Position numbers and translations under genes: made by a program
Assembly (NCBI GenBank): GCA_013334335.1
Contig: JAAXXR010000016.1
Location: forward strand, 1 to 33,283
Direction of reading: 5' to 3'
DNA: 33,283 bases
Source: Chlorobiaceae bacterium
GTDB lineage: Bacteria; Bacteroidota; Chlorobiia; Chlorobiales; Chlorobiaceae
Notes under the pieces: model-generated
Databases searched by the model: none
The model's input: only the letters and a program-made list of their open reading frames with translations
What the model was told of the DNA's origin: nothing
Shown: piece after piece, positions 9,536 to 19,363 of the stretch
How the letters are laid out: each line of letters starts with the position of its first letter
How positions within the stretch are numbered: the first letter of the stretch is position 1

Positions 9536-11218
9536 TCAAGGGCGCTTGTTGAGCTTTGAGATCCAGTGCCGGAGAATCTGCATGACTTCAATTTCCGTTT
9601 CTGCCTGCCGAATGGCAGCTCGCCACTGGCTGTCTCCTGCCATTTTGCAGATTGTCCCGAGCAGCTTGACGTGGCTGTCCGGCCGGCTTACAGGAGAGAG
9701 CATCACAAACATGATCGTGGCGGTATTGCTGGAGGCCGGATCGTAAATCCCAAGTTTGTTGACGCCGATGGCAAGCACGGCCGTTTCAATGCCTTCGATC
9801 CGGGCATGGGGCAAGGAGATCTCTTCACCGATAAAGGTCGCCCCCTGTTTTTCCCGTTCAAGAATTGCTCTCCAGGCATAATCGAACGGGATGGCGGCAT
9901 GAGTCTGGCAGATCGTCTCGAGCAGTTGGCCAATAGCAGCCTCCTTTTCGAGCACTTCGTGCCAAAGCCGGACATTGGCATGGAAGATCGGCGCCTCAGG
10001 CGCCTCGTGCTCCTGTTTCCGACCGGTCAGGTTTGCACGAATGCCCGACAGATACTCCGCGGCGCGAAGCTGGTTTTGTCGTACAAATGGCCGGCGGATA
10101 TCGGGTACGACGATCGTAATGCCTTGACTTTCCTGCATCAGCCGCTCGACCATCGTGCGTTTCCCGAGCAGTCGGTGCCACCAGGAGAGCCGTTCCCCCG
10201 AATTGCCTGTGACGAGGTGGCCAACCCGGTACTCCCTGGCGAATTGAAGGACAGTGGAGACGATGTCGTTTCCCTTGTAGATAAAAACGGTGGCCCCAAG
10301 CTCCTGGGCCAGAGCGAGCGTATTGGACAGCTTTCTCTGAATGCCTGCATCGATCATTTCAGGTCTTTCAGAAAGGCTCTGGACATAGACGGCGTACCAG
10401 TTGCGATTCAGGCGTCCTGCGATCCGGGAAGCATATCGCAACAGCGCCGCGCTGTTTTCCGATCTCGAACTCAGGCAGACCATAACCTGATCAGGGCTGG
10501 AGGCCGCCTCCTCCTGAAGGGGACTCCTGCGGTTCGTGTCGATCTGTGCGGCCACCTCGCGAAGGGTCAGTTCCCTGAGCTGTTCAAGGTGCTCCGGCCT
10601 GAAAAAGTTGGAGAGTGCCGATTCCACTTTGCCGGCCAGATAGACTTTACCCTCTTTGAGACGGTGCAGGAGGTCGTCCGTGGCGATATCGACATTGACG
10701 ACCTGATCGGCCTGAAGGGCGATCCGGTCGGGAATGCGCTCCCTGACCTTGACGCCAGTCACCATTTCGACGGTTTCATACAGGCTTTCAAGATGCTGGA
10801 TGTTGAGCGTCGAAACGACGTGGATCCCGCTGTCGAGGATCTCTTCGACATCCTGATACCGTTTCGAATTCCGCGAACCCGGCACGTTGGTATGGGCGAG
10901 CTCATCGACCAGGACCACGGCTGGACGTCGCTGCAGGAGCATGTCGATATCCATTTCGGTGATTTCGATGCCCCGGTATGCCAGGGTTTTCCTTGGTATG
11001 ATTTCAAGGTTTTCAAGCAGTGCTTCCGTCTCTTTCCTGCCGTGCGTTTCGACAATACCTGCAACGACATCGATTCCCTGCTCCCTGAGCCGTTGGGCTT
11101 CGAGTAGCATCTGGTAGGTTTTCCCCACGCCCGCGCAGTAGCCCAGGTAAATCTTGAGGCGTCCGCGCTGTGCATGTTGTATCAGGCGGAGAAATGTGTC
11201 TGCCCGGCTCTCTTCCAT
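9536..11218 (-). CDS. kdpD: Kinase-less KdpD (KdpD-N and USP domains) fused to a PTS EIIA domain
   Basis: The 560 residues open with the KdpD N-terminal ATP-binding domain (about 15-225), with Walker A GYCAGVGKT (26-34) and Walker B VVLVDELAHTN (101-111). A universal-stress-protein domain (about 245-372) follows. The four membrane helices and the histidine kinase of full KdpD are absent. In their place, about residues 425-555 form a fructose/nitrogen-type EIIA domain with the active-site pattern ISLPHAR, where His471 is the expected phosphorylation site. The USP domain has SRS (251-253), then 20 residues, then WYAVY (274-278), matching the c-di-AMP-binding pattern described for Firmicute KdpD. 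GGAGG lies 8 bases before the ATG, and the gene starts 19 bases after kdpC, so it is in the operon. It cannot phosphorylate a response regulator itself. A sensory or adaptor role towards the nearby kinase or the pump is inference. Confidence 0.9.
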   Translation of the reverse strand: MEESRADTFLRLIQHAQRGRLKIYLGYCAGVGKTYQMLLEAQRLREQGIDVVAGIVETHGRKETEALLENLEIIPRKTLAYRGIEITEMDIDMLLQRRPAVVLVDELAHTNVPGSRNSKRYQDVEEILDSGIHVVSTLNIQHLESLYETVEMVTGVKVRERIPDRIALQADQVVNVDIATDDLLHRLKEGKVYLAGKVESALSNFFRPEHLEQLRELTLREVAAQIDTNRRSPLQEEAASSPDQVMVCLSSRSENSAALLRYASRIAGRLNRNWYAVYVQSLSERPEMIDAGIQRKLSNTLALAQELGATVFIYKGNDIVSTVLQFAREYRVGHLVTGNSGERLSWWHRLLGKRTMVERLMQESQGITIVVPDIRRPFVRQNQLRAAEYLSGIRANLTGRKQEHEAPEAPIFHANVRLWHEVLEKEAAIGQLLETICQTHAAIPFDYAWRAILEREKQGATFIGEEISLPHARIEGIETAVLAIGVNKLGIYDPASSNTATIMFVMLSPVSRPDSHVKLLGTICKMAGDSQWRAAIRQAETEIEVMQILRHWISKLNKRP

Positions 11219-11237: not shown

Positions 11238-11843
11238 TCAGTGTCGGGGTTCGGTCATGCGCTGCTGCCCTGCGTCGAGTTTCAAGTTCAATGAAAGAAC
11301 ATTCACCAACCCTTCGCCAGTCGGCAGGAGTGCCTGTCCATCAGCCTCGAGTTGTATCGCAGCCTCGATAACGGAGAGCGGTACCCCCCTTGCGCGGGCA
11401 ACCCGCGAAGCCTGATACCTTGCGGCCTGACGTGTAATGTACGGGTCGAGGCCGCTGCCAGATGCCGTCGCCAGGTCGGCAGGAAGCGGGCGAAGGTGAT
11501 CTGCGCTGAAATCTGCGACGCTCTGCACGGCGCGTTGCCGAACTTCCGGGCCGGCCGGCGAGAGGTTGCTCCCACCTGCCCCCGCCCCGTTGTACTTGAC
11601 CGCTGAAGGCCTTGGCCAGAAATAGCGGGCCTCGGTGAAACCCTGGGCGATCAGCCGGCTTCCGACGACCTGTCCGGAGGGGTCCCGAAGCAGCGATCCG
11701 GAAGCGCTCTCGGGAGCCGCCAACCGGGCAAAGACGTATAGGGCAAGAGGGTAGATGCCGCCGCACAGCACGATGGTTGCTACGGTGACCCTGATGGATG
11801 TCATGATATTGGCGCTTGTCTGTTCCATAAGTGTGATTTTCAT
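11238..11843 (-). CDS. kdpC: Potassium-transporting ATPase subunit C
   Basis: Small single-helix subunit that stabilises the KdpFABC complex and assists ATP binding by KdpB. The 201 residues have one N-terminal membrane helix (about 17-40) followed by a periplasmic part with the family landmarks GSRLIAQGFTEARYFWPRPS, GSNLSP and SGLDPYITRQAARYQ. The C-terminal region has LGEGLVNV-like PTGEGLVNVLSLNLKL. GGAGG stands 6 bases before the ATG. The gene begins 13 bases after kdpB and ends 19 bases before the kdpD-like gene. Confidence 0.97.
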   Translation of the reverse strand: MKITLMEQTSANIMTSIRVTVATIVLCGGIYPLALYVFARLAAPESASGSLLRDPSGQVVGSRLIAQGFTEARYFWPRPSAVKYNGAGAGGSNLSPAGPEVRQRAVQSVADFSADHLRPLPADLATASGSGLDPYITRQAARYQASRVARARGVPLSVIEAAIQLEADGQALLPTGEGLVNVLSLNLKLDAGQQRMTEPRH

Positions 11844-13977: not shown

Positions 13978-15648
13978 TTATTGAACTGCTGTGGACAGGT
14001 AGTCTGCCACCGGTCCGAGGACGGCGACCGGCATGAAGAGCAGCGCGCCGATCAAGAGGACGCTGCCGAGAATGACGACAGCGAACAGGGGCGTATCGAT
14101 TCGCAGCGTTCCGATGGTTTCCGGTACCGGTTTCTTGGCTGACATGGAGCCGGCGATCGCGAGCGGCAGAATGATGGGGATGTATCGGCCCAGCAGCATG
14201 ACGATGCCGGTCGCCATGTTCCATGGCACCGTATTGTCGCCAAGACCTTCAAAACCGGAGCCGTTGTTGGCTGCCGCAGAACTGAACTCGTAGAGTATCT
14301 CCGTGAACCCGTGTGCGCCCTTGTTGAGCACGGTGCCGGATCCCCATGAAGTAGAAGCGAATACGGCGGTTCCGGCAAGGATAAGCAGCGGGTGGACAAG
14401 CAGCGCGAGCAACGCGAGTTTCATTTCATGTGTTTCCACCTTTCTGGCACAGTATTCAGGTGTCCTGCCGACCATCATGCCGCAGATGAACACCCCGACG
14501 ATGATGAAGATGAACATGTTGATGAATCCGACACCCACGCCGCCGAAAATCACATTCAGCCACATGCCTGCCAGCGGTACCAGGCCGGTCAGCGGGTTGA
14601 GGCTGTCATGCATGCAGTTGACCGAGCCGTTGCTGGTCGCCGTCGTGACGGCCGCCCATATCGCGGCGGTGCCGGTGCCGAAACGAAGCTCCTTTCCTTC
14701 GAGATTCGATGCCGCTTCGATCGGCAAACCGCTGAGTGCGGAAGCGGGCGCGCCTTCCAGCCAGATCGCGAGACTCGCTTTCAGGATGAGCAGCAGCATC
14801 ATCACGGAAAAGATCACGGCTGCATGGCGCATTCGTCCGGTTATGCGACCAAACATCCACACCGTGGACATGGCGATCAGGGGGATGCTCACACACTCGA
14901 AAAAGTTGGTCAGGAAGGTAGGGTTTTCAAAAGGGTGCGTCGAGTTTGGGCCGAAAAATCCTCCGCCATTTGTGCCGAGCTGTTTGATGGCCACCATGGC
15001 CGCCACCGGTCCCCGGGCGATGGTCTGCGCGACCCCTTCAAGCGTCCTGGCTGTGGCGGCCCCTTCGAACGTCATGGGTACTCCGCCAACAACGAGCAGC
15101 AGGGCCAGCAGAATCGAAAGTGGCATGAGAATGAAAAGCACCGACCGGCAGAGATCGCGGTAGAAGTTGCCGACATGCAGTTCTCCTGCCAGGGCCCTGG
15201 CAAGGGCCGTGAAGCAGGCGATGCCTGTCGCCGCCGAAACAAACTGCAGCCAGGTCAGGACGAAGAGCTGGGAGAAATAGCTCATTGAAACTTCACCGGA
15301 GTAATGTTGCAGGTTGGTGTTGGTCACGAATGAAGCCGCTGTGTTGAAGATCAGGCTGGCTTCAAGGGAGCCTTTTGCATCCGGATTGAGCGGCAGGGAC
15401 TGTTGCAACGCAAGCATGAGGAACGCCGCAAAGAACATCACGGTATTGAACAGGAGCATGGAGCGTACGTATCCCTTCCAATCCTGCTCAACGTCGAGCA
15501 TCCTTCCACCAGTTTTCGCCAGGAGGAGCTGCAGTCGGTCGGTACCGGTTGACGGCGACGGATTCATGACCCTGGCCATGAAGTTGCCAAGAGGCCAGGA
15601 TAGCAGGACTGGCACGGCAATGAACAGCAACAGCAAGAGCATCGGCAT
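13978..15648 (-). CDS. kdpA: Potassium-transporting ATPase subunit A
   Basis: Channel-like subunit that selects and passes potassium, related to the SKT/Trk superfamily. The 556 residues (E. coli 557) contain four pore-loop filter motifs in order: TNTNLQ (109-114), GTNGGG (225-230), TSNGSV (338-343) and NNGSGF (461-466). The E. coli Gly232 site, where a mutation lowers affinity, has its counterpart in the second loop and is glycine here, as expected for a high-affinity pump. AGGAG lies just before the ATG, 11 bases after kdpF. Confidence 0.98.
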   Translation of the reverse strand: MPMLLLLLFIAVPVLLSWPLGNFMARVMNPSPSTGTDRLQLLLAKTGGRMLDVEQDWKGYVRSMLLFNTVMFFAAFLMLALQQSLPLNPDAKGSLEASLIFNTAASFVTNTNLQHYSGEVSMSYFSQLFVLTWLQFVSAATGIACFTALARALAGELHVGNFYRDLCRSVLFILMPLSILLALLLVVGGVPMTFEGAATARTLEGVAQTIARGPVAAMVAIKQLGTNGGGFFGPNSTHPFENPTFLTNFFECVSIPLIAMSTVWMFGRITGRMRHAAVIFSVMMLLLILKASLAIWLEGAPASALSGLPIEAASNLEGKELRFGTGTAAIWAAVTTATSNGSVNCMHDSLNPLTGLVPLAGMWLNVIFGGVGVGFINMFIFIIVGVFICGMMVGRTPEYCARKVETHEMKLALLALLVHPLLILAGTAVFASTSWGSGTVLNKGAHGFTEILYEFSSAAANNGSGFEGLGDNTVPWNMATGIVMLLGRYIPIILPLAIAGSMSAKKPVPETIGTLRIDTPLFAVVILGSVLLIGALLFMPVAVLGPVADYLSTAVQ

Positions 15649-15806: not shown

Positions 15807-17702
15807 TCAGCACAGGCGCGGGTCAGGGGTGTTGACGCTCATGGCCCGGTCTGATTCGAGTAAAACACCTGATGTTACCCCTTTCTGTGCATGCACAGGC
15901 AACGTGAAGCTGAAGCAGGAACCTTCACCCGGTCTGCTTTTCGAACTGACGCTGCCGCCGTGTGCCTCCACGAGTTCTTTGACGATTGCCAGCCCCAGTC
16001 CAACGCCGGAGCGTACATCCTGTCCGGGAACCCTGAAAAACTGATCGAACAGATGCTCCATATGTTCGGACTGAATGCCTGTTCCGGTATCTTCCACATA
16101 AAACCGGACAATTGCCTCCTCCCGGGTGGCACCAGCTTTCACGACGCCACCGGGCATGGTGAATCGCAGGGCGTTGGACAACAGATTGGCGAATACGTGC
16201 TGAATGGCGGACGGATCGGCCATTACCTCGGGCAATGCGTCGGTATTGACCTCCGAGAGCGTGACTTTCCGGTCTCTCGCTTCACTCAGAAACGGTTCGA
16301 TACCCTCCCTGAGCAGCACGGACGGCGATATCGGCTGTGGCTTGAGTTGTTCCCTGCCCGATGCGATTCGATTCAAGTCAAGCAGATCGTCGAGCATCTC
16401 AACCAATCGCTCACAGTCATCCCGGGCACCCAGGAGCAGCTCGCTCTGCTTCCTGTTCAGCTCTCCTATCTCCTCGTCGAGCATCAGGTGGACCGACATG
16501 CGCAGCGAAGTCAAGGGTGTTTTGAGCTGGTGCGAAACGGTTGATACCAGGCCTCTCTTCAACTCCTGCTGTTCCCTTAGCTGTGTCACATCGCTGATCA
16601 TCAGGATCGTTCCGGTGACATCGTTCGATTCCGATATGATCGGAATGGCGACAGGCTGAAAGAAATATTCCTTGTTGCCGACGAACTGCTGCACAAACGC
16701 CTGTTGTGCGAGTTCTGAGGGTCGCCTGCTGCTTAGAGAGCTTTCGACAAGTTCCGTCATCCAGGAAAAGGGAAGCCCACCGACCGTAACGCCTGGGGTA
16801 AGGCCGAAAAACCGCTTCGCTTTTTCTGTAGCGACCGATACCTGCTTGTCGGGGTCGATCAGCGCGACAGGTAGTGGTAATGCACGGAAGACCTCGTCGG
16901 TCTGTTTTCGGCTTCTGATCAGGTTTGCCAGGTCGCTGTTCCGGTGTTGACGCAGCGCGATCAGCATGTCGTTGAATGATCGCGACAACTGGCCGACTTC
17001 ATCATGAGCGGCCGTCTGGAGGACCACTTCAAGATTTCCCCGACGGATCTCTTCAGTGGTTTCGATCAGGTTTCGCAAGGGATTGAGCACCCAGCGCTGA
17101 ATCTGGTAGGCCAGCGCCAGGGTGAGCAGGATGCTTACCATGGCGATGGAGAGCACCCGGACGCGGGCTGAAACCGAAAGGTTGTGTGAATCGGTTTTCT
17201 CCGATATCATGTTCGCCTGGTTCATCTCGAGAATCTCGCGGTTGACCTGCAGGAGTTCGCTGAACACCGGCAACAGCCTGGTGGTGTAGAGCGTACGCCG
17301 TTGCTCGACTGGCCGCGACCTGTCCATGATGCGGGAAAGCGTTCCGAAATAGTCTGCCGAAAGGCGGCGAAGCCGAACCGCCCGTTCCGCCTCACCCGGC
17401 AAGGTGATGTTGTGGAGCTCACGATCGAGCGCTTTGTTGAACTTCGCCGTGTTCGTTTTCACTTCCCGCACTCCTGCATCGTGGTCGCCGAGCAAAGAGG
17501 TCAACACTGCGCTGTCGATGCCACCCAGGGCATCTTTCATATCCTGACAGGCCACAACGCTCAGGTAGTTCTGTTTGAGTACCACGGCCAGGGATTTGCC
17601 GAGCACATCGATCTGCCTCATGGTCATCAAGCTGATCGACGCCACGATGACCACCATGCCGAAAAGGCCGAGCAACAGTTTCTGTCTGATTCCAAGTTTC
17701 AT
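15807..17702 (-). CDS. Membrane sensor histidine kinase (HAMP-PAS, KinB-like)
   Basis: The 631 residues form a two-helix membrane sensor: TM1 (about 8-28), a periplasmic helical-bundle domain (30-182), TM2 (about 183-203), HAMP (200-252), PAS (268-376), HisKA with the phosphorylatable His391 in VSTVSHQLKTPLTSL, and an HATPase domain with N box FANLLSNALRF, G1 EDTGTGI and G2 GVGLGLAIVKELVEAHGG. The order and style match KinB of Pseudomonas, not KdpD. It stands directly before kdpF (66 bases) and after an NtrC-class regulator gene, so the pair very likely controls kdp, replacing the kinase half missing from KdpD. The signal it senses is not known. A -24/-12-like element lies just before the start. 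Confidence 0.93.
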   Translation of the reverse strand: MKLGIRQKLLLGLFGMVVIVASISLMTMRQIDVLGKSLAVVLKQNYLSVVACQDMKDALGGIDSAVLTSLLGDHDAGVREVKTNTAKFNKALDRELHNITLPGEAERAVRLRRLSADYFGTLSRIMDRSRPVEQRRTLYTTRLLPVFSELLQVNREILEMNQANMISEKTDSHNLSVSARVRVLSIAMVSILLTLALAYQIQRWVLNPLRNLIETTEEIRRGNLEVVLQTAAHDEVGQLSRSFNDMLIALRQHRNSDLANLIRSRKQTDEVFRALPLPVALIDPDKQVSVATEKAKRFFGLTPGVTVGGLPFSWMTELVESSLSSRRPSELAQQAFVQQFVGNKEYFFQPVAIPIISESNDVTGTILMISDVTQLREQQELKRGLVSTVSHQLKTPLTSLRMSVHLMLDEEIGELNRKQSELLLGARDDCERLVEMLDDLLDLNRIASGREQLKPQPISPSVLLREGIEPFLSEARDRKVTLSEVNTDALPEVMADPSAIQHVFANLLSNALRFTMPGGVVKAGATREEAIVRFYVEDTGTGIQSEHMEHLFDQFFRVPGQDVRSGVGLGLAIVKELVEAHGGSVSSKSRPGEGSCFSFTLPVHAQKGVTSGVLLESDRAMSVNTPDPRLC

Positions 17703-17725: not shown

Positions 17726-17741
17726 GACAATTAGCGTGCCA
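17726..17741 (-). promoter_or_regulatory. Candidate sigma54 (-24/-12) promoter before the kinase-kdp genes
   Basis: Read on the minus strand, TGGCACG-N4-TTGTC has a perfect -24 half and a -12 half with T in place of the usual C of TTGC. The predicted start is about 12-15 bases before the kinase ATG, a short leader with little Shine-Dalgarno sequence. The neighbouring response regulator is of the sigma54-activating class, which supports the call. The -12 mismatch keeps confidence moderate. Confidence 0.5.
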
Positions 17742-17803: not shown

Positions 17804-17832
17804 TGCACGGTCGAAAAGCACCGGACCGTGCA
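17804..17832. promoter_or_regulatory. Perfect 9-bp inverted repeat, candidate enhancer site for the NtrC-class regulator
   Basis: TGCACGGTC (17804-17812) and GACCGTGCA (17824-17832) are separated by 11 bases. The pair lies 63-91 bases upstream of the -24 element at 17735-17741, the usual distance for an activator of sigma54. On the minus strand no T-run follows the hairpin, so it is not a standard terminator of the regulator gene. A 10-bp palindrome TCAACGTTGA sits close by at 17837-17846. The rest of the 251-base gap (17703-17953) shows no gene. Confidence 0.5.
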
Positions 17833-17953: not shown

Positions 17954-19321
17954 CTACAACCCGTACTGCTTTCGTTTCCTCCAGAGCGTCGCCTTGTCGA
18001 TTCCCAGCACCTCAGCGGCTTCATGCACTGAACCGACCGACGCAAGAACCCTGCGGATATGCAGCTCTTCGATGTTCCCCAGCGTTATTCTATCTCCAAT
18101 CCTTGGTTGCGGCTGTTGTGCGGAGATCATGGACTCCGGGAGAAGCTCCTGGCCGATTGTCGTAGCCGTACAGAGAATCACGGCCCGTTCAACCACGTTT
18201 CGAAGCTCACGGATGTTGCCCGGCCAGCGGTAATCGTGAAAAATGCCCAGCACCCCGTCAGTGAAGCCCTGAATGGCCTTGTGGTTCTGGGCATTGAAAA
18301 ATGCAAGCAGGTTTCCGGCCAGGGCGTCGATATCACCGGAGCGTTCAGCAAGGGAGGGGAGGGTCACCTGAATCACGTTGAGGCGATAGTAGAGATCTTC
18401 GCGGAAACCGCCGGATGCGATCGCCGATTTCAGGTCGGTATTGGTGGCGGCGATGATCCGCACGTTCGCTTTCCGCGTTCGCTGATCACCGACGCGCTCA
18501 TACTCCCGCTCCTGGATGAAGCGAAGCAGCTTCGACTGGATCGACAGGGGAAGATCACCGATCTCGTCAAGGAACAGGGTCCCGCCCTCACAACTGGCGA
18601 CCCGTCCCGGATTATCCCTGATGGCTCCGGTGAAGGACCCCTTGACGTGACCGAACAGTTCGCTCTCCAGAAGTTCCCGGCTCAGTGACGGGCAGGAGAC
18701 CACGCCGAATGGCTTGGCGCGTCGATGGCTCCAGCGATGGATGAGACGGGCGAGCATGGTTTTGCCCGTGCCGCTCGCCCCCTGGATCATGACCACCGCA
18801 TCGGAAGCCGATACCTGCCGGGCAAGCTCGATCACCCGTTGCATTGGCGGATGACTGGAGTTCAGCAACGCTTCAGGGTCATTTCGGTCCAGATCGTCCT
18901 GCAGGAGATCGATCCGCTGTTCCAGCACCCTGATGGAGGCCAGTCGTTCAAGAAGAAGCTTGAGCTGACCTGGAGAAAAGGGCTTGGGAAGGTAGTCGGT
19001 CGCACCGCGCTTCATCGCCTCCACCGCCGAATCCACCGAAGCGAACGCAGTAATGACGACGATCTTCAGCCAGGGAGAGCTGACAAGGAGGTCGGAGACC
19101 AGGTCAAGTCCGCTCTCCAGGCCTAACCTGAGATCCACGAACGCAAGGTCGAAAATCTGTAAACCCGCCTCGGTCAGCGCGTCCCTGGCGTTCGACACTG
19201 CAGTGACCTTGTGGTGGTACATGTCAAAAAACAGCATCATGGTTTTTCTGATGTTGCTCTCGTCATCCACAACCAGCACATTCATCGTGGGCGAAGGCCC
19301 AGCCTGTTCAAGACGATCCAT
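17954..19321 (-). CDS. NtrC-class sigma54-dependent response regulator (AlgB-like)
   Basis: The 455 residues contain a receiver domain (acidic pair DDE near the N-terminus, phospho-acceptor Asp63 in FVDLRLG, Lys in LPKPF), a sigma54-activating AAA+ domain (Walker A GASGTGKT, Walker B GGTLFLDEIGDL, sigma54-contact loop GSFTGA at 228-233) and a C-terminal FIS-type helix-turn-helix (VHEAAEVLGIDKATLWRKRK). The overall style is that of AlgB, the partner of KinB. The usual contact loop is GAFTGA, and the second residue is Ser here. The ATG at 19319-19321 is chosen. A TTG three codons upstream and an ATG 12 codons downstream (MNVLVVDDE) are alternatives, and none has a clear Shine-Dalgarno. It heads the kinase-kdp cluster in place of the OmpR-class KdpE. 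Confidence 0.93.
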   Translation of the reverse strand: MDRLEQAGPSPTMNVLVVDDESNIRKTMMLFFDMYHHKVTAVSNARDALTEAGLQIFDLAFVDLRLGLESGLDLVSDLLVSSPWLKIVVITAFASVDSAVEAMKRGATDYLPKPFSPGQLKLLLERLASIRVLEQRIDLLQDDLDRNDPEALLNSSHPPMQRVIELARQVSASDAVVMIQGASGTGKTMLARLIHRWSHRRAKPFGVVSCPSLSRELLESELFGHVKGSFTGAIRDNPGRVASCEGGTLFLDEIGDLPLSIQSKLLRFIQEREYERVGDQRTRKANVRIIAATNTDLKSAIASGGFREDLYYRLNVIQVTLPSLAERSGDIDALAGNLLAFFNAQNHKAIQGFTDGVLGIFHDYRWPGNIRELRNVVERAVILCTATTIGQELLPESMISAQQPQPRIGDRITLGNIEELHIRRVLASVGSVHEAAEVLGIDKATLWRKRKQYGL

Positions 19322-19363
19322 GGCAGTCAACCGGTAAGTCTGCGATTATGTTTTCTGCAAGTT

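What the first reader, a model, noticed from the sequence alone, without database searches (positions are those of the whole stretch)
9536..11218. Natural fusion of a kinase-less KdpD with a PTS EIIA domain
The sequence shows KdpD-N and USP domains joined directly to an EIIA domain with an intact PHAR active-site histidine (His471), while KdpD's membrane and kinase parts are gone. In E. coli the separate EIIA(Ntr) protein binds KdpD and modulates it, so one polypeptide here holds two proteins known to interact. This suggests a dedicated sensor/adaptor linking PTS phosphorylation, nucleotide signals and potassium uptake. Whether it acts on the kinase, the pump or both is inference. Short KdpD proteins exist elsewhere (cyanobacteria), but this fusion is not one I know as described.
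Basis: partly seen in the sequence, partly recalled or inferred. Interest (0 to 1): 0.78.

Follow-up and report, generated by a model that had tools for sequence, protein, structure and literature searches.

The report
PTS-linked short KdpD potassium regulator
A protein that may switch potassium pumps off has been joined, in green sulfur bacteria and about ten other bacterial groups, to a domain that the sugar/energy-sensing phosphotransferase system can phosphorylate, which suggests a direct and so far undescribed link between the cell's energy status and potassium uptake.

Summary
The 560-aa ORF at 9536-11218(-) is KdpD domain + USP + PTS EIIA-2 domain with an intact phospho-acceptor His471. 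It is no assembly join: 84 or more loci in Chlorobiaceae, desulfobacteria, Aminicenantes, Fibrobacteres, Phycisphaerales and other groups carry it, with His471, Walker A and Arg186 invariant. The interpretation changes in three ways. (1) It is probably not kinase-less: the KdpD domain is the atypical serine kinase shown in 2024 to inhibit KdpFABC by phosphorylating KdpB Ser162, and the residues named there are kept. (2) The part of KdpD that free PtsN binds (transmitter/GAF) is missing, so 'two interacting proteins fused' does not simply follow; a separate histidine kinase, an NtrC-type regulator and a sigma-54 promoter complete the operon. (3) It is not tied to KdpABC: in 10 loci the equivalent operon has KimA as its transporter, four of them in near-complete genomes without KdpA. 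The genome has EI, HPr and PtsN, no EIIC, no diadenylate cyclase. Best reading: a PTS-responsive short KdpD that brakes potassium uptake, PTS phosphorylation adding to, or in Chlorobiaceae replacing, the c-di-AMP input of other short KdpDs. New variant of a known kind; function inferred, not shown.

The parts
9536..11218 (-). KdpD-USP-EIIA fusion protein, 560 aa
   Evidence: ORF; Pfam/NCBIfam; relatives
10541..11170 (-). KdpD domain (PF02702, residues 17-226): putative atypical serine kinase
   Evidence: solved relative 2r8r, E=5e-64
11117..11143 (-). Walker A, residues 26-34 GYCAGVGKT (G-X5-GKT form)
   Evidence: G26, G30, G32, K33, T34 are 86/86 in fused proteins
10901..10918 (-). Walker B, residues 101-106 VVLVDE
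   Evidence: D105 86/86, E106 85/86
10100..10489 (-). USP domain, residues 244-373
   Evidence: weak Pfam match; KdpD models to residue 373; structure match 7ji4
9566..9976 (-). PTS EIIA type-2 domain, residues 415-551
   Evidence: 1a6j match; pLDDT about 93
9806..9808 (-). His471 codon, predicted phospho-acceptor
   Evidence: H in 86/86 fused proteins
11238..11843 (-). kdpC
   Evidence: PF02669
11857..13962 (-). kdpB; Ser181 in TGES corresponds to E. coli KdpB Ser162
   Evidence: P-type ATPase domains; motif
13978..15648 (-). kdpA
   Evidence: PF03814, E=1.5e-214
15807..17702 (-). separate membrane histidine kinase (HAMP, PAS, HisKA, HATPase)
   Evidence: present beside kdp and kimA versions
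17726..17741 (-). sigma-54 type -24/-12 element TGGCACGCTAATTGTC upstream of the HK gene
   Evidence: same position in relatives; enrichment upstream of HK
17805..17832 (-). inverted repeat GCACGGT-N13-ACCGTGC, candidate enhancer site for the NtrC-type regulator
   Evidence: similar TTTTGCAC..CGACCGTGCA in L035 and L039
17954..19330 (-). NtrC-type sigma-54-dependent response regulator
   Evidence: PF00072, PF00158, PF02954

Best explanation
The protein is a short-form KdpD: a soluble atypical serine kinase (KdpD domain) plus USP domain, which in other bacteria inhibits an already made KdpFABC pump by phosphorylating a KdpB serine, here extended by a PTS EIIA domain. EI and HPr phosphorylate His471 according to the PEP/pyruvate state of the cell. 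The phosphorylation state of this domain then sets how strongly the protein acts on potassium uptake: most likely by gating the serine-kinase action on KdpB (Ser181 in this pump), and possibly also by touching the operon's own histidine kinase. New pump synthesis is controlled separately by the HK and NtrC-type regulator at a sigma-54 promoter in front of the HK-kdpABC-fusion operon. In genomes with no diadenylate cyclase, such as this one, PTS phosphorylation takes the place of the c-di-AMP input known for other short KdpDs; in most other lineages it is an added input. Shown: domains, residues, operon, promoter match, distribution, PTS proteins in the genome. Inferred: phosphorylation of His471, serine-kinase activity, and the direction of the effect.
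For: Residues required for the serine kinase in E. coli (Walker A, D109, E110, R190; PMC11018627) correspond here to GKT32-34, D105, E106, R186 and are kept in at least 85 of 86 fused proteins; W39 is Tyr35, aromatic in 83 of 86. KdpB has the target TGES motif. His471 86/86. EI present in 35 of 36 fusion-bearing genomes tested; own genome has EI, HPr and PtsN in open frames and no EIIC, so its PTS looks purely regulatory. No DAC in the own genome or in 4 other Chlorobiaceae; DAC absent in 11 of 36 fused against 0 of 14 short (p=0.02). Operon RR-HK-kdpABC-fusion repeated across phyla. In Chlorobiaceae 30 of 30 KdpA-positive genomes carry the fusion against 5 of 36 KdpA-negative ones. Sigma-54 sites upstream of HK: mean best mismatch 3.5 against 6.3 shuffled; RpoN present. 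Fused EIIA domains separate from free PtsN with 98% support.
Against: KimA-locus copies keep Walker and His residues where KdpB is not the operon's pump, so KdpB cannot be the only partner. 25 of 36 fused genomes do have a DAC, so EIIA is not a general replacement for c-di-AMP; the fused/short difference is confounded by phylogeny. Short KdpDs without EIIA sit in the same kind of operon, so EIIA is not essential to the module; on the tree it was apparently lost several times. The KdpD-N part of the structure model is poor (pLDDT 40-80), so inter-domain contacts cannot be read. No biochemical data.
Confidence: 0.5

Rival explanations
1. EIIA works mainly on the neighbouring histidine kinase: the fusion is a soluble adaptor that docks by its EIIA domain on the HK transmitter (as free PtsN does with E. 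coli KdpD and PhoR) and so tunes sigma-54 transcription of the operon; the KdpD/USP part only binds nucleotide and partner.
For: The HK is the constant neighbour while the pump changes between KdpABC and KimA. PtsN of E. coli binds the KdpD transmitter domain (title of reference 59 in PMC13104625) and stimulates KdpD and PhoR (PMC5458449). This HK scores best to WalK/PnpS/PhoR-type kinases.
Against: Serine-kinase residues are kept throughout, which plain docking does not need. Short KdpDs without EIIA have a similar HK neighbour. No interaction data.
Confidence: 0.27
2. The EIIA domain is only a phospho-sink or structural/dimerisation module retained by descent; regulation is by nucleotide binding to KdpD/USP alone.
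For: EIIA is the fastest-evolving part (26-50% identity in far relatives against about 60% for KdpD-N), and it was lost in some lineages that kept the operon.
Against: His471, E456, T461, G490 and P509 are invariant among 52 proteins, which points to a kept active site; EI is present in 35 of 36 genomes.
Confidence: 0.13
3. c-di-AMP or another nucleotide bound at the USP domain is the main signal, as in Deinococcus and Staphylococcus KdpD.
For: S251 and Y278 match the ends of SXS-X20-FTAXY (PMC4686210); many other fusion-bearing genomes encode a DAC; best USP structure match is the c-di-AMP complex 7ji4.
Against: This genome and four other Chlorobiaceae have no DAC; the motif also fits the E. 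coli type RXXXR-X8-WXAVY, which was not the c-di-AMP-binding type; no riboswitch in the region.
Confidence: 0.1

Closest known systems
Short KdpD/USP atypical serine kinase of Deinococcus geothermalis (PMC11018627)
   Same: KdpD domain plus USP, no membrane or histidine-kinase part; Walker motifs kept; linked to kdp genes
   Different: No EIIA domain; stimulated by c-di-AMP, for which this genome has no cyclase; no mention of PTS domains or Chlorobi in that paper's main text
E. coli KdpD with free PtsN (EIIA-Ntr)
   Same: KdpD-N, USP and EIIA of the same families; potassium uptake as output
   Different: Two polypeptides there; PtsN contacts the transmitter domain, absent here; HK domain in the same chain as KdpD-N; KdpE (OmpR type, from general knowledge) instead of an NtrC-type regulator
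Rhizobial ptsN2 encoded in the kdpDE cluster (PMC9239096, PMC13104625)
   Same: A dedicated EIIA beside kdp genes that binds KdpD
   Different: Separate protein, full-length KdpD, contact through the GAF domain
NCBIfam NF038185 KdpD_non_kinase
   Same: Matches residues 6-371
   Different: Scores 354 against a cut-off of 550; the model has no EIIA part
KimA potassium importer (6s3k, Bacillus subtilis)
   Same: The transporter in the alternative operon is a clear relative (E=1.9e-64)
   Different: No KdpD-type partner in the described Bacillus system as far as I know; here it shares an operon with HK, regulator and KdpD-USP-EIIA

Membership tests
Short (ASK) KdpD | KdpD domain with Walker A, Walker B, adenine-site aromatic and Arg | tested here: met
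   PF02702 E=5e-93; GKT32-34, D105, E106, Y35, R186
Short (ASK) KdpD | no TM, GAF or DHp/CA domain in the chain | tested here: met
   only KdpD, Usp and EIIA domains found
Short (ASK) KdpD | phosphorylates the KdpB TGES serine | not testable with these tools
   target serine present (KdpB Ser181); activity not assayed
Short (ASK) KdpD | activated by c-di-AMP | tested here: inconclusive
   no DAC in the genome; USP motif ambiguous; binding not assayed
PTS EIIA type 2 domain | profile match and phospho-acceptor His in PH motif | tested here: met
   70.2 bits against 27; His471 invariant; fold of 1a6j
PTS EIIA type 2 domain | phosphorylated by HPr | not testable with these tools
   EI and HPr genes present
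PtsN equivalog (TIGR01419) | score over the equivalog cut-off | tested here: not met
   45.6 bits against 138.7; fused domains form a branch apart from PtsN
Full-length KdpD sensor kinase (KdpDE) | TM, GAF and histidine-kinase domains | tested here: not met
   absent from the ORF; separate HK gene
USP domain | Pfam gathering score | tested here: not met
   17.8 against 24 bits; fold match 7ji4 TM 0.83 supports the assignment all the same

The most novel reading that the evidence does not exclude
HK + NtrC-type regulator + KdpD-USP-EIIA is a pump-independent potassium control cassette: the transporter can be KdpABC, KimA or both, and PTS phosphorylation is the common input. In the KimA-only Chlorobiaceae clade the KdpD kinase site has been re-tooled (aromatic 35 to Leu, Ala108 to Gln) for a new target such as KimA or the HK, so that a KdpD-type kinase would control a transporter that is not a P-type ATPase.
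Probability: 0.3. Interest if true: 0.8.

Novelty: new variant of a known kind. Interest (0 to 1): 0.6.

Why it matters
How short KdpDs are controlled in bacteria without c-di-AMP is open, and how PtsN affects potassium uptake is disputed even in E. coli. A natural single-chain link of a KdpD serine kinase to an EIIA domain, conserved in many phyla, gives one soluble protein in which both questions can be tested with point mutants. The KimA version asks directly whether KdpD domains have targets other than KdpB.

Tried and rejected
Sequencing or assembly join: rejected, since the fusion recurs at 84 or more loci. Degenerate EIIA: rejected, His471 invariant. 'EIIA replaces c-di-AMP everywhere': rejected, 25 of 36 fusion genomes have a DAC. 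EI as a discriminating trait: uninformative, nearly universal in both groups. c-di-AMP riboswitch or other Rfam element in the region: none. The first sigma-54 scan had an offset error in my script and found nothing; corrected. Whole-protein structure: domain arrangement not trustworthy (pTM 0.34), so no interface is claimed. Literature: eight searches plus one for KimA with KdpD gave no description of this fusion; only open-licence papers are covered and I judged most from title and abstract, so absence is not proof.

Full report
What is there. The ORF at 9536-11218(-) encodes 560 aa: KdpD domain (17-226, E=5e-93), a USP domain (about 244-373; weak in Pfam, but covered by the KdpD models and by structure) and a PTS EIIA type-2 domain (415-551, E=2.4e-19). 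The EIIA part aligns with E. coli EIIA-Ntr 1a6j including the active-site histidine and is modelled with confidence around 93. It ends an operon on the minus strand: NtrC-type regulator (17954-19330), membrane histidine kinase (15807-17702), kdpA, kdpB, kdpC, fusion.

It is conserved, not an accident. A six-frame search of 296 genomes of the phylum and a scan of 84,980 species genomes returned the fusion in Chlorobiaceae and, at 45-58% identity over the full length, in Desulfobacterota and relatives, Riflebacteria, Verrucomicrobia, Hydrogenedentota, Aminicenantes, Acidobacteria, Krumholzibacteria, Phycisphaerales and Fibrobacteres. Many of these are metagenome bins, so single phylum labels may be wrong, but the spread as a whole is not in doubt. 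Gene order RR-HK-kdpA-kdpB-kdpC-fusion recurs in most loci with enough flank. In 84-86 fused proteins Walker A GKT, D105, R186 and His471 are invariant. On a tree of the KdpD+USP part the fused proteins lie inside a larger set of short KdpDs from Planctomycetes and Myxococcota; the tree needs five changes between fused and short, compatible with one gain and a few losses. Fused EIIA domains (with three stand-alone paralogues) and free PtsN fall on two sides of one branch with 98% support.

What the parts are known to do. Silberberg et al. 2024 (PMC11018627) showed that the KdpD N-domain is an atypical serine kinase that inhibits KdpFABC by phosphorylating KdpB Ser162, proposed that short KdpD/USP proteins do only this, and showed that the Deinococcus version is stimulated by c-di-AMP. 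The residues they found essential are present here, as is the target serine (KdpB Ser181, TGES). The main text of that paper does not mention PTS domains. Free PtsN acts on E. coli KdpD through the transmitter domain (title cited in PMC13104625) and on S. fredii KdpD through the GAF domain (PMC9239096); neither domain is in this chain.

The PTS of this genome. EI, HPr and a separate PtsN are present, with HPr (GLHTRPA) and PtsN (LPHAK) histidines visible in the sequence; no EIIC. A PTS without a sugar permease is taken to be a regulatory one. No diadenylate cyclase was found in this 99.6% complete genome or in four other Chlorobiaceae. Over 50 genomes, DAC is missing in 11 of 36 with the fusion and 0 of 14 with a short KdpD (p=0.02 without correction for relatedness). 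So EIIA cannot be a general substitute for c-di-AMP, but may be one in Chlorobiaceae and Fibrobacteres.

Transcription. A sigma-54 type -24/-12 element, TGGCACGCTAATTGTC, lies at 17726-17741, about 24 bases before the HK start codon; relatives have TGGCACG(T/C)TATTTG(C/T) at the same place. Over 53 loci the best match upstream of HK has on average 3.5 mismatches against 6.3 in shuffled sequence, and no such signal appears before kdpA, kdpC or the fusion gene. An inverted repeat at 17805-17832 is a candidate regulator site. RpoN is encoded. The HK-kdpABC-fusion block is therefore probably one sigma-54 operon under its own regulator.

A second context. In Chlorobiaceae all 30 KdpA-positive genomes of the sample carry the fusion; 5 of 36 KdpA-negative genomes have it or a fragment of it. 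Four of these (G161, G048, G173, G094; 98-100% complete) were fetched: each has regulator-kimA-HK-fusion instead of kdp. The fifth, G201, has a kimA operon plus a fusion fragment at a contig end. The transporter is a KimA relative (6s3k, E=1.9e-64). Fibrobacteres show the same pairing, and some loci hold kimA and kdpABC together. In all, KimA without kdpABC was seen beside the fusion at 10 loci (L047, L084, L097, L120, L135-L139, L141); two more copies, on truncated contigs (L121, L140), fall in the same clade by tree. All Chlorobiaceae kimA-locus copies keep Walker A/B, R186 and His471 (L097 of Fibrobacteres has E106D); one clade of six has aromatic 35 to Leu and Ala108 to Gln next to the nucleotide site. 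No short (EIIA-free) KdpD was seen beside KimA. The constant partners are the HK and the regulator; the pump is the variable part. KdpA was used as a proxy for the pump; KdpB was not searched genome-wide.

Mechanism. I commit to a short KdpD serine kinase with a PTS input (confidence 0.5), with docking of EIIA on the partner HK as the main rival (0.27). The KimA loci are the strongest argument that KdpB is not the only target. The direction of the effect cannot be read from sequence: in E. coli and S. fredii unphosphorylated PtsN is the binding form, in P. putida the phosphorylated one.

Novelty. Each domain, and the PtsN-potassium link, is known; the single-chain form, its spread, its sigma-54 operon and the KimA pairing were not found described in the papers that could be searched. 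New variant of a known kind.

Noticed in passing
L120:6052-13308, L135-L139, L141, L047:1-6815, L084, L097: KdpD-USP-EIIA beside a KimA-type potassium importer, HK and NtrC-type regulator, in place of kdpABC; some loci (L040, L042, L044, L086, L098) have both transporters.
   Followed up: yes
L117:3308-3925, L118:3778-4440, L119:3487-4149: Stand-alone 206-221 aa EIIA paralogues, 44-46% identical to the fused EIIA and grouping with it on the tree; in L118 they lie near a PALP-family enzyme and an amino-acid-type periplasmic binding protein, not near kdp.
   Followed up: partly
L107:1558-2076 and L109:1468-1971 (Archangium): Separate EIIA gene about 1.5 kb upstream of kdpA in a locus whose KdpD is the short form without EIIA: a possible unfused version of the same pairing.
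   Followed up: no
L142:13451-18839 (G201): A regulator-kimA-HK operon without a KdpD-type gene next to the HK.
   Followed up: no
L120, L121, L137, L138, L140, L141, fusion protein residues 29, 35, 64, 66, 108, 193, 201, 202, 204: KimA-associated clade with a long branch and changed residues around the nucleotide site, Walker residues kept: possible change of kinase target.
   Followed up: partly
window 17805-17832: Inverted repeat GCACGGT-N13-ACCGTGC about 100 bases upstream of the HK start, partly conserved in L035 and L039; other loci have TTGCA-centred palindromes in the same zone.
   Followed up: partly
L075 and L083 (Desulfobulbaceae): Short KdpD 65-70% identical to the window protein but without EIIA, nested among fused forms: apparent recent loss of the EIIA domain.
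   Followed up: partly
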